From Acidobacteriota bacterium (GTDB lineage: Bacteria; Acidobacteriota; Vicinamibacteria; Vicinamibacterales; CAVVIG01), in NCBI GenBank assembly GCA_017883165.1, contig JADGOC010000029.1, positions 1-32,168 on the forward strand: a stretch of 32,168 nucleotides of DNA, in the 5' to 3' direction. This document shows positions 11,941 to 15,025 of this stretch, in pieces. The position numbers were made by a program, and so were the translations under genes. How positions within the stretch are numbered: position 1 is the stretch's first letter; each line of letters opens with the position of its first letter. The notes beneath the pieces were generated by a model that was not told the DNA's origin, ran no database searches, and worked only from the letters and a program-made list of their open reading frames with translations.

Positions 11941-12477
11941 TCAGGCAGCCCGGCCATCCATGAAATCGCGGCAGATGCGCACGCACTCGCTGCAGATGTT
12001 GGCGGCCGGCCCGATGGCGAGCGCTCTCTCTCGATGGCTTCGCTTGTTGCAGAAGCTGCAGCGTTCTTTCGCACCGTCCGGGGCACGTCGCAACGTGCCG
12101 GTCCCCCACGCGTCATCCAGCGCGGCACTCGCGAGCTCGAGGCAGGCGTCGCAAATATACACGTTCGGCCCCGCGACGAGCTTCGAGACCTCGCTCGCGG
12201 GGCGGTCGCACCATGTGCACACCGCGTCGCGTCTGGCGTTTCGCGTCCGCCACACGCGCCGCCACCAACTGCCGCCGGACGCGTGCACGATCTGCTGCAC
12301 GCGCTGGTGGCTGAACGAGAGTGCTTCGGCGATTTCCCGAAGAGAGGCGCCCGCCAGATGGAGCCTCCGAATCGCCGCGTGGTACTCCCCGCGAGCCAAC
12401 AACGCACGGCGCTCGCCTTCCGCGAGCTCCGCGCCCGCGGCCTTTGCCTTGTCCAGGAGCTCCTGGTTCAGCGTCAT
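11941..12477 (-). CDS. HTH protein with two ClpX-type C4 zinc-binding domains
   Basis: The protein has 178 residues. Residues 1-35 are charged and helical. About 40-66 is a helix-turn-helix of the AGASLREIAEALSFSHQRVQQI type (resembling sigma-region-4 or homeodomain-like HTHs). Two ClpX zinc-binding domains follow: Cys87-X2-Cys90-X18-Cys109-X2-Cys112 and Cys140-X2-Cys143-X18-Cys162-X2-Cys165. The spacing and the AGPNVYICDACLEL / GPAANICSECVRIC segments match the ClpX N-terminal finger, which in ClpX dimerises and docks substrates and adaptors. No AAA+ domain is present. I infer a DNA-binding regulator, possibly autoregulated, because its promoter carries two identical operators. The fingers could dimerise it or recruit partners. 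A ribosome site (GGAG, about 9 nt upstream) supports ATG 12477. Confidence 0.85.
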   Translation of the reverse strand: MTLNQELLDKAKAAGAELAEGERRALLARGEYHAAIRRLHLAGASLREIAEALSFSHQRVQQIVHASGGSWWRRVWRTRNARRDAVCTWCDRPASEVSKLVAGPNVYICDACLELASAALDDAWGTGTLRRAPDGAKERCSFCNKRSHRERALAIGPAANICSECVRICRDFMDGRAA

Positions 12478-12492
12478 GGGCGATCTCCAATC

Positions 12493-12509
12493 GTCTATCG
12501 TGAATAGAC
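12493..12509. promoter_or_regulatory. Operator copy 1, GTCTA-N7-TAGAC
   Basis: This 17-bp inverted repeat has half-sites GTCTA (12493-12497) and TAGAC (12505-12509), with the symmetry extending one further base pair inward. It lies immediately downstream of the -10 of the minus-strand promoter, over the expected transcription start. The same arrangement is repeated at 12516-12532, 23 bp away centre to centre. A repressor bound here would block initiation. Confidence 0.72.
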
Positions 12510-12538
12510 AATATAGTCTACCTATACTAGACGATCAA
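12510..12538 (-). promoter_or_regulatory. Sigma-70-type promoter of the HTH/zinc-finger gene
   Basis: On the minus strand the -35 is TTGATC (12538-12533), the spacer is exactly 17 bp, and the -10 is TATATT (12515-12510, five of six matches). The predicted start lies near 12503, giving a leader of roughly 25 nt with a GGAG Shine-Dalgarno before ATG 12477. The promoter begins only 9 bp beyond the stop of the upstream ADOP permease gene. Confidence 0.68.
12516..12532. promoter_or_regulatory. Operator copy 2, GTCTA-N7-TAGAC, filling the promoter spacer
   Basis: Half-sites GTCTA (12516-12520) and TAGAC (12528-12532) are identical to operator 1. The 17 bp of this operator coincide base for base with the spacer between the -35 and -10 hexamers. 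A protein bound here would cover the RNA polymerase site. The 23-bp centre-to-centre distance from copy 1 is close to two helical turns, so two dimers could bind on nearly the same face. Confidence 0.72.
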
Positions 12539-12547
12539 GTCACCCTC

Positions 12548-15025
12548 TTATTCCTCTCTCAGGGCCGCCGCGGGATTGAGCGACAGGCCCTGCCGCGCCG
12601 CCACGACGCACGCGGCGAGGCCGATGGCTCCCATCAGGACGGCCGTCGCCGCAATCACGATCGGGTCGTGGGCGCTGACCTCGAACAGCAGGCCGCCGGC
12701 CAGCGTGCCGATTCCCAGCGCCCCGCCGATCCCGGCGGCGACGCCAACCGCCACCGGCGCGAAGCCCTGGCGGACGACCAGGCCGAGCGCCTGTGACGGT
12801 TTTGCGCCGAGCGCCGCGCGGATGTTCATCTCGCGGCGGCGGCGCGACACGCCGTATGCGGTCACCGCGTACACGCCCACTATCGCGATGAGGAGCGCCA
12901 CGGCGCTGAAGGCGGTGAAGAGCGTCGTCTGATATCGACGGCCGCCCAGGGCGTCGTCCACGAGCTGCTTCATCGGGCGGGCGTTGGCGATCGCGATCTC
13001 GGGATCGACGCGCCAGACGGCCTGCCGGACCCCTCCGGTGAGCGCCGCGGGGTCGCCGGCGGTGTGAATCACGATTGACGCCCGCGTCCGGCTTCGGTAC
13101 GAGTACGGCACGTACACCATCATGGCGGGCAGGTGTTCCAGGTCCGAGGGCCGGCCGTCGGGCACGACGCCGACGATTTCGAACGGCTTTTCTTCCGGAT
13201 CGCCGCGCCTGAACTGGCGCCCAATCGGATCGACGCCCGGCCACAGCCTCGCGGCGACCCGGTCGGACACGACCGCAGGCGTCGTCGCGCGCGTCGCATC
13301 GAGGTCGGCGGCGGCCAGCGAGCGGCCGCGGCGAATCGGAATCGACAGCGTTTCGAAGAACGCTGGGCCGACGAAGCGGTAGTTCGCGAGCGGCAGATCC
13401 GCGCTGATCTCTTTCCGCTCCTTCGGCAGAATCGCGTCGACCCACGACTCGCCGGTGAGCGGCAGGTTCGAGATCCACGAAGCGGTCTCGACGCCCGGCA
13501 GTGCGCGCACGCGATCGAGAATCGCGTCGTAGGCGCGCGTGCGCGGCTCGATAGCCGCGTAGCGCGCGCCGGGCAGCGTCACGTCCACGGCGAGCACGTG
13601 ATCCACGGCAAAGCCGCGATCGACCTCCATGACGCGGGCGAAGCTCTTGGCGAGCAGCAGCGTCACCGCCAGCAGCGTCACCGACAACGCCACTTGGGTC
13701 GCGAGCAGCGCCGCGCGCGTGCGCATTCCGCCGCGGTCGCTCGTGGTGGCGAGCCCGCCGGCCCGAAGCGACTGCTGCAGGCTGCCGCCGGCGCCCGCGC
13801 CGCCTACGAGACGCCACGCCGGCACGAGCGCGACGAGCAGCGCGGTGGCGATCGACACACCGGCCGCGAACGCGAGCACGCGCAGGTTCAGACTGACCTC
13901 GTCGACGCGCGGCAAGCCGACGGGCGCCGTGCGCACGAACAGCGCGAGCGCCGCATATGCCACCAGCAACCCGCAGGCGCCTCCGGCCAACGCCAGCGCG
14001 CCCTGCTCGATCACCAGGCGCGAGATCAGCCTGGCGCGGCTGGCGCCGAGCGCGACGCGCACCGCCGCGTCGCGCGCCCGAGCCAGCGTGCGCGTCAGCG
14101 ACAAATTCGCGAGGTTGGCGCACGCCATGAGCAGCACCGCGACGATCGCGCCAAGCAGCAGCATGAGGCCACGGCGCGCCTGGCCGACCACCGCCTCGAT
14201 GAGCGGAACGACTCTCGCCTTCAGTCCCGGCTCGTGGGTCAGCGTCGCGGCGATGTCGGTCTGCAACACGTTGAGCTCGGCGAGCGATTGTTCGAGGGAG
14301 GTTCCGGATGCAAGCCTGCCGAGAACGACGTAGTTGTACTCGCCGCTCGCCGAGTACTGCTCCGGATCGATCCGCAGCGGCACGAACGCGTCGGGAGCCG
14401 AGGCGTGACTGACGAGGCCGCCGAGATCGTCACCCTCAGGGAAGCGGAACCCCGGTTCCAGCACACCGACAACGGTGCGAGGGGTGCCACCGAGCGTGAC
14501 GGCCCGTCCCAACACGCCCGGATCGCCCCCGAACCGCTGACGCCACAGCCGGTCGGTCAATACGATCACCGGTTCGCGGTTCTTCTGTTCGTCCTCCACG
14601 CGCAGCGTGCGTCCGAGCGCGGCGCCGGCGCCCAGCGCGTCAAACAGATTCCCGGTGGTGATGACGACTTCCAGCTGCAGCGGCTCGCCGGCGCCGGTCA
14701 GCGTCTCGGGCCGCCCCTCCAGTTCGACGAGCTGCTCGAAAGACCGCGATCGCGCGCGCCACGCGGCGAAGTGCCGCGGGTTCGCCGGCAGCGACGGATA
14801 GAGATGCGTGAGCCCCGGGACGATTTCCTGGACGACCACCAACCGCTGCGATTCGCGGTAGGCGAGCGGGCGCAGCAGGACGCCATCGACAATCGAGAAC
14901 ACGGCGGTCGTCGCGCCAATCGTCAGCGCGAGTGTGAGGACGACGGTCGCGGCATACGCCGGATCGCGCCGGAGGGTCTTGAGCGCGTCGCGCAAGTCGA
15001 ATGTGAGGCCGTACATGGTCGGCAT
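12548..15025 (-). CDS. ADOP-type ABC transporter permease (duplicated FtsX/MacB-like)
   Basis: The 825 residues have the architecture of acidobacterial duplicated orphan permeases: an N-terminal RDALKTLRRDPAYAATVVLT helix, a first MacB-like periplasmic domain (about 50-260), and an FtsX domain with several helices (about 280-420). A second periplasmic core (about 470-690) and a second FtsX domain (about 710-820) follow. The TAVFSIVDGVLLRPLAY and ALGASRARLI segments are hallmarks. The family has no fused ATPase, and its cargo is unknown. ATG 15025 is chosen; ATG 15016 is an alternative. It lies 27 bp downstream of the adaptor-permease-permease run, so it probably belongs to the same transcript. 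Confidence 0.9.
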   Translation of the reverse strand: MPTMYGLTFDLRDALKTLRRDPAYAATVVLTLALTIGATTAVFSIVDGVLLRPLAYRESQRLVVVQEIVPGLTHLYPSLPANPRHFAAWRARSRSFEQLVELEGRPETLTGAGEPLQLEVVITTGNLFDALGAGAALGRTLRVEDEQKNREPVIVLTDRLWRQRFGGDPGVLGRAVTLGGTPRTVVGVLEPGFRFPEGDDLGGLVSHASAPDAFVPLRIDPEQYSASGEYNYVVLGRLASGTSLEQSLAELNVLQTDIAATLTHEPGLKARVVPLIEAVVGQARRGLMLLLGAIVAVLLMACANLANLSLTRTLARARDAAVRVALGASRARLISRLVIEQGALALAGGACGLLVAYAALALFVRTAPVGLPRVDEVSLNLRVLAFAAGVSIATALLVALVPAWRLVGGAGAGGSLQQSLRAGGLATTSDRGGMRTRAALLATQVALSVTLLAVTLLLAKSFARVMEVDRGFAVDHVLAVDVTLPGARYAAIEPRTRAYDAILDRVRALPGVETASWISNLPLTGESWVDAILPKERKEISADLPLANYRFVGPAFFETLSIPIRRGRSLAAADLDATRATTPAVVSDRVAARLWPGVDPIGRQFRRGDPEEKPFEIVGVVPDGRPSDLEHLPAMMVYVPYSYRSRTRASIVIHTAGDPAALTGGVRQAVWRVDPEIAIANARPMKQLVDDALGGRRYQTTLFTAFSAVALLIAIVGVYAVTAYGVSRRRREMNIRAALGAKPSQALGLVVRQGFAPVAVGVAAGIGGALGIGTLAGGLLFEVSAHDPIVIAATAVLMGAIGLAACVVAARQGLSLNPAAALREE

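What the first reader, a model, noticed from the sequence alone, without database searches (positions are those of the whole stretch)
12493..12538. Two identical operators interlocked with a promoter; one is exactly the 17-bp spacer
Seen: on the minus strand the order is TTGATC, then the 17-bp repeat GTCTA-N7-TAGAC, then TATATT, then a second GTCTA-N7-TAGAC, then a leader with GGAG and the start of the HTH/zinc-finger gene. The half-sites are identical in both copies, while the two 7-bp centres differ, so the half-sites appear to be under selection. Inference: this is a tightly repressed, probably autoregulated promoter, with the encoded HTH protein as the obvious candidate binder. A BlaI/PadR-type regulator elsewhere is the alternative.
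Basis: partly seen in the sequence, partly recalled or inferred. Interest (0 to 1): 0.7.

Follow-up and report, generated by a model that had tools for sequence, protein, structure and literature searches.

The report
Paired operators of a self-repressing zinc-finger regulator
A small bacterial gene for a DNA-binding, zinc-finger protein carries two identical switch sites laid exactly over its own promoter; the same pair sits before every relative of the gene that we found, and before many unrelated toxin-antitoxin genes whose antitoxin has a similar DNA-reading helix, so it is very probably the protein's own off-switch.

Summary
On the minus strand, TTGATC - GTCTAGTATAGGTAGAC - TATATT - GTCTATTCACGATAGAC lies before a 178-aa gene (HTH plus two ClpX-type zinc fingers). 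These are the only two exact GTCTA-N7-TAGAC sites in the 4.24-Mb genome. All five full-length orthologues found (four genera, three families, two classes of one phylum) carry the pair at the same place: 19 of 20 half-sites are exact, while the 7-bp centres are random (98% versus 26% pairwise identity). Neighbouring genes differ, and no sampled genome without the gene has the pair. The site travels with the gene, so the encoded protein is the best candidate binder: an autorepressor that blocks RNA polymerase. New here: many HicA-HicB toxin-antitoxin promoters of Actinobacteria and their phages carry the same operator, often paired at 24 bp and filling the -35/-10 spacer, when HicB ends in an HTH of the same type (S-[H/F]-Q-R). 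Operator and HTH thus go together across unrelated protein architectures. The motif alone is not diagnostic: a BlaI-type, an XRE-type and several TetR genes elsewhere also have it or something close. Binding, repression, the signal read by the zinc fingers and other targets are untested.

The parts
12533..12538 (-). -35-like hexamer TTGATC
   Evidence: TTGACT in two orthologues, not conserved in two others
12516..12532 (-). Operator 1, GTCTAGTATAGGTAGAC, equal to the 17-bp promoter spacer
   Evidence: conserved in five of five orthologues
12510..12515 (-). -10-like hexamer TATATT, also the linker between the operators
   Evidence: TATATT, TAATAT or ATATTGT in orthologues
12493..12509 (-). Operator 2, GTCTATTCACGATAGAC, covering the expected transcription start
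   Evidence: conserved in five of five orthologues
12485..12488 (-). Shine-Dalgarno-like GGAG
11941..12477 (-). Gene for the 178-aa HTH plus two ClpX-type zinc fingers protein, probable autorepressor
12283..12375 (-). HTH region, residues 35-65, with recognition-helix motif SHQRVQQ
   Evidence: Pfam matches below cut-off; profile match to HicB HTHs
12115..12222 (-). First ClpX-type zinc finger
   Evidence: PF06689 over cut-off
11956..12063 (-). Second ClpX-type zinc finger
   Evidence: PF06689 over cut-off

Best explanation
The two sites are operators of the protein encoded just downstream. Its HTH (S-H-Q-R-V) reads GTCTA half-sites; a dimer binds each GTCTA-N7-TAGAC palindrome, and two dimers sit side by side at 23-bp centre spacing, one over the -35/-10 spacer and one over the transcription start, so RNA polymerase cannot bind and the gene represses itself. 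The tandem ClpX-type zinc fingers probably give dimer or tetramer contacts and may sense zinc or oxidation, or bind a Clp substrate or adaptor, to release repression. Shown by sequence: the sites, their uniqueness, their conservation with the gene, and the link between this HTH type and this motif in HicB operons. Inferred: binding, repression, stoichiometry. Speculative: the signal.
For: The pair is exact and unique in its genome. Five of five full-length orthologues (52-59% identity) carry it 2-16 bp before their ATG, with half-sites 98% and centres 26% identical. The double site is absent from all sampled genomes of the class (193) and phylum (297) that lack the gene. Neighbouring genes differ. 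The position over spacer, -10 and start fits repression. Independent support: among 17 HicAB loci fetched by protein similarity, 8 have GTCTA-N5..7-TAGAC within 120 bp of the first gene, top of all 1024 five-mers, with the next at 2; their HicB HTH matches the window's HTH by profile (98.4% probability). In C. glyciniphilum (TTGACA-[17-bp site]-TAGCAT) and C. bovis (TTGACA-[17-bp site]-TATAGT) the operator is again exactly the spacer.
Against: No binding data. HTH assignments are below Pfam cut-offs. The same pair occurs before a BlaI-type gene (L086) and beside XRE-type and other phage genes without this HTH, so the motif does not by itself identify the binder. HicB relatives were sought from a locus first found through the motif (L057), although the 17 counted loci were picked by protein similarity alone. 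Not all HicBs with a QR helix have the exact site (Gordonia phages have TCTA-N6-TAGA; Rhodococcus phage E3 none). In the HTH profile comparison one HicB row (CryoANT) was cut at the wrong place.
Confidence: 0.85

Rival explanations
1. Another regulator of the cell (BlaI, TetR, PadR or XRE type) binds the pair and controls this gene; the encoded protein acts elsewhere.
For: A BlaI gene in a viral contig has the same pair, an XRE gene lies beside one, and TetR-like genes of relatives have single GTCTAAC-N3-GTTAGAC sites.
Against: No other exact or paired site in the genome, not even before a regulator's own gene; neither own-genome BlaI gene has the motif upstream, and one has another palindrome. 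The pair follows this gene through four genera with different neighbours.
Confidence: 0.1
2. The protein binds its sites as an activator, or as a repressor whose main targets are other genes with degenerate sites, autoregulation being secondary.
For: Seventeen one-mismatch single sites exist in the genome, and the function of the gene is unknown.
Against: Those single sites are fewer than the reversed control pattern gives (17 against 90). Operators on the spacer and start fit repression, not activation.
Confidence: 0.12
3. The repeats act as RNA or DNA hairpins (attenuator, origin iterons) rather than protein sites.
For: Each is an inverted repeat, and iteron-like arrays of the motif exist in viral contigs.
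Against: Five-bp arms with 7-bp loops are weak hairpins; centres are random and spacing fixed; operator 1 lies upstream of the expected start, so it is not transcribed; orthologues have exactly two copies on the promoter.
Confidence: 0.02

Closest known systems
HicB antitoxins of Actinobacteria and their phages that end in an S-[H/F]-Q-R helix (for example M. branderi plasmid, mycobacteriophages Phrann and IdentityCrisis, C. glyciniphilum plasmid)
   Same: Same HTH type by profile; same GTCTA-N6/7-TAGAC operators, often paired at 23-24 bp and lying in the -35/-10 spacer of their own operon.
   Different: HicB has an N-terminal HicB-like domain and a HicA toxin partner; the window protein has an N-terminal HTH, two ClpX-type zinc fingers and no partner gene.
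ClpX zinc-binding domain (PF06689; PDB 2DS5-2DS8)
   Same: Both zinc fingers match by sequence; Foldseek probability 1.0 and rmsd 0.6-0.8 over 36 residues. In ClpX it is a dimerisation and substrate or adaptor-binding domain (PMC7804408 and its references).
   Different: No AAA+ ATPase; two copies in one chain fused to an HTH.
Sigma-70 region 4 HTH
   Same: Weak matches of the window HTH to Sigma70_r4 and TIGR02937 and of a HicB HTH to FliA_WhiG; the half-site TAGAC differs by one base from the -35 core TTGAC.
   Different: All below family cut-offs; no other sigma regions. A likeness only.
BlaI/MecI penicillinase repressors (PF03965)
   Same: One viral-contig member has the same paired site.
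   Different: No zinc fingers; the window protein does not match PF03965, and an own-genome BlaI gene has another palindrome.
Y. pestis HicB3 with two operators BS1 and BS2, BS2 over the -10 box
   Same: Two palindromic operators at the promoter, self-repression (review PMC11594946).
   Different: 15-bp sites; that review's passages describe no GTCTA operator and list only proteobacterial and streptococcal HicBs as shown to bind DNA.

Membership tests
Autoregulated HTH repressor with tandem palindromic operators | Palindromic sites overlapping the gene's own promoter | tested here: met
Autoregulated HTH repressor with tandem palindromic operators | Sites conserved with the gene across genomes | tested here: met
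   Five of five orthologues, half-sites 98% versus centres 26% identity
Autoregulated HTH repressor with tandem palindromic operators | The encoded protein binds the sites and represses | not testable with these tools
   Needs EMSA and a reporter assay
ClpX C4-type zinc finger proteins (PF06689) | Score over the curated cut-off | tested here: met
   81.6 bits against 27, two stretches; fold match
ClpX | AAA+ ATPase domain | tested here: not met
   178 aa with zinc fingers only; a separate 418-aa frame with the zinc finger, probably the true ClpX, is at G000:C26
HicB antitoxin | HicB-like N-terminal domain and adjacent hicA | tested here: not met
   No such domain; no hicA-like gene noticed next to the orthologues in the ORF lists
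HicB antitoxin, S-[H/F]-Q-R subgroup | HTH type and operator | tested here: met
   Profile match 98.4%, same operator
BlaI/MecI | PF03965 domain | tested here: not met
   No match for the window protein
Sigma-70 region 4 | Score over the Pfam cut-off | tested here: not met
   16.8 bits against 24.1
PadR | PadR domain in the protein | tested here: not met
   No PadR match in Pfam; PadR genes elsewhere in the genome were not searched

The most novel reading that the evidence does not exclude
An HTH plus its paired GTCTA-N7-TAGAC operator is a movable regulatory cassette, shared between HicB antitoxins and a stand-alone regulator in which two ClpX-type zinc fingers replace the antitoxin part; the zinc fingers sense the clients or adaptors that ClpX binds (or zinc or oxidation), making this a self-limiting sensor tied to ClpXP proteolysis.
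Probability: 0.2. Interest if true: 0.65.

Novelty: new variant of a known kind. Interest (0 to 1): 0.45.

Why it matters
It gives an uncharacterised protein family (HTH plus two ClpX zinc fingers) a concrete, testable DNA target, and links one recognition-helix type to one operator across unrelated proteins, including many HicAB toxin-antitoxin systems of actinobacterial plasmids and phages, whose operators were not described in the papers found here. That would let targets of such HTHs be predicted from sequence.

Tried and rejected
Regulon search: no second exact site and no second paired site with up to 3 mismatches in the own genome; the one-mismatch single sites are fewer than the control pattern gives and were not pursued. 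Single GTCTA-N7-TAGAC sites in relatives: four are GTCTAAC-N3-GTTAGAC, at least three of them before TetR-like genes, and the rest look like chance or belong to other genes, so they were not counted. A zinc-finger protein of Streptomyces with the HTH at the other end (L072) has no such site. Weaker ClpX-like hits in other phyla (L046-L051) are ClpX itself or fragments and have no site. Viral contigs: the pair also occurs before a phage primase, near an XRE gene, before a BlaI gene and in iteron-like arrays; only L057/L060 and L093 have the QR-type HicB. A control double palindrome of another sequence (CATGT/ACATG) hit only one contig, against 17 contigs for the two GTCTA patterns. Literature: no paper found with this operator or protein architecture; the library holds open-licence papers only, and DNA-string searches there are crude. 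Structure search gave confident hits only for the zinc finger, not for the HTH.

Full report
Observation. The minus strand reads TTGATC-GTCTAGTATAGGTAGAC-TATATT-GTCTATTCACGATAGAC-GATTGGAGATCGCCC-ATG. Both 17-bp sites are exact GTCTA-N7-TAGAC; the first equals the spacer of the only promoter-like match in the region, and the second would cover the transcription start. In the window only these two match even with one mismatch allowed (0.11 expected), and they are the only exact matches in the 4.24-Mb genome.

The gene. Window 12477-11941 encodes 178 aa: a weak HTH (HTH_38, HTH_23, Sigma70_r4, all under their cut-offs) and two strong ClpX C4 zinc fingers. An AlphaFold model from three orthologues (mean pLDDT 76) has helices at 32-41, 46-53 and 57-66, consistent with a tri-helical HTH, and a zinc finger that Foldseek matches to ClpX ZBD structures at 0.6-0.8 A. 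The ZBD of ClpX is a dimerisation domain that also binds substrates and adaptors (PMC7804408 and its references).

Orthologues. Full-length relatives are rare: G011 (59% identity), G091 (56%), G376 (54%) and G487 (52%), found in scans of 193 genomes of the class and 396 of the phylum. All four have the pair directly before the gene. On the sense strand: G011 CGAATT-GTCTATTTGCAATAGAC-TAATAT-GTCTATATGCTGTAGAC; G091 CCGCAT-GTCTAGACATGGTAGAC-ATATTGT-GTCTATGATGACTAGAC; G376 TTGACT-GTCTATACCGTATGGAC-TAATAT-GTCTATGTACTATAGAC; G487 TTGACT-GTCTATATTAAATAGAC-TATATT-GTCTAGTATATTTAGAC. Over the five, half-sites are 98% pairwise identical (196/200) and centres 26% (37/140), the chance level. The inner N7 spacing never varies; the linker is 6 or 7. 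The double-site scans gave no match in any sampled genome without the gene. Those scans missed G091 (7-bp linker) and G376 (one mismatch); their sites were read directly.

Context. Upstream lie a MacB/FtsX-type permease (window), and in the others different genes: a nucleotidyltransferase-like frame further up in G011, a radical-SAM-like gene in G091, a kinase-like gene in G487 (G376). These last names come from reading the ORFs, not from a search. No neighbour recurs. The conserved unit is the operator pair plus this one gene, which points to autoregulation.

A second line of evidence. Scanning IMG/VR for the double site returned, among others, a HicA-HicB-like operon (L057/L060) whose HicB ends in IPLRDVGRLLGISFQRAHQLV, much like the window's ASLREIAEALSFSHQRVQQIV. 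Relatives of such HicBs were then fetched by protein similarity from plasmids and phages. Many carry the same operator before hicA, in pairs or with a degenerate partner: M. branderi, C. glyciniphilum, C. bovis, R. fascians, Paenarthrobacter, Phrann, IdentityCrisis, and with N5 prophiGD102-1. Ranking all 1024 five-mers X for X-N5..7-revcomp(X) in the 120 bp before the first gene puts GTCTA first with 8 of 17 loci, the next having 2 (the C. bovis start was placed by hand because its hicA is not annotated). A further viral contig, L093, has TTGACT-[site]-TATAGT before a HicA toxin (PF07927) with an S-H-Q-R HicB. HicBs whose helix differs (Clavibacter, Arthrobacter ZXY-2, Xeno) lack the site. Gordonia phage HicBs with S-F-Q-R have the shortened TCTA-N6-TAGA, and Rhodococcus phage E3 has none. 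Profile comparison of the two HTH groups gives 98.4% probability over 38 columns (one HicB row was mis-cut, and the segments were chosen around the QR motif).

Mechanism. Shown: sites, conservation, uniqueness, promoter overlap, HTH-operator association. Inferred: a dimer on each palindrome (half-site centres 12 bp apart), two dimers side by side (site centres 23-24 bp), steric block of RNA polymerase. Not known: what relieves repression, and whether there are other targets. The tandem ZBDs suggest oligomerisation and a sensory or Clp-related role; that part is speculation.

Limits. The motif is not exclusive: a BlaI gene in L086 (PF03965, 1.7e-22), an XRE gene region (L059), phage arrays, and single-site TetR-like genes have it or something close. 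In the own genome this does not rescue the BlaI rival, because neither BlaI gene shows the motif. PadR genes were not examined. No experiment was possible.

Verdict. The finding is real and its interpretation well supported: a conventional autoregulation mechanism in an apparently undescribed regulator family, with an unexpected link to HicB antitoxins.

Noticed in passing
L061 736-775, L066 759-799, L067 699-739, L064 781-796, L068 784-799, L076 333-372, L079 328-367, L093 5475-5514: HicA-HicB operons of Actinobacteria, their phages and a viral contig share GTCTA-N6/7-TAGAC operators, several as pairs at 24 bp, often exactly between -35 and -10; not described in the papers found.
   Followed up: partly
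L086 459-499: A BlaI/MecI-family gene in a viral contig is preceded by the same paired operator, with 24 bp between centres: the same motif with an unrelated regulator.
   Followed up: partly
L056 4743-4800 and L058 3724-3780: Phage intergenic region before a primase-like gene with a run of GTCTA/TAGAC palindromes; binder unknown.
   Followed up: no
L003, L004, L006, L010 at 1501-1517: Relatives of the window's genome have GTCTAAC-N3-GTTAGAC beside a second palindrome like TGAACAGTGTTCA, before TetR-like genes: probably the operator of that TetR family.
   Followed up: no
L101 upstream of 669 (G000:C160): One of the own genome's BlaI genes has CTAAGTACTAAATAATTAGTAG just before its start, a likely BlaI operator.
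   Followed up: no
window 12548-15025: The gene upstream of the operator is a MacB/FtsX-type permease on the same strand that ends only about 10 bp before the -35 hexamer.
   Followed up: no
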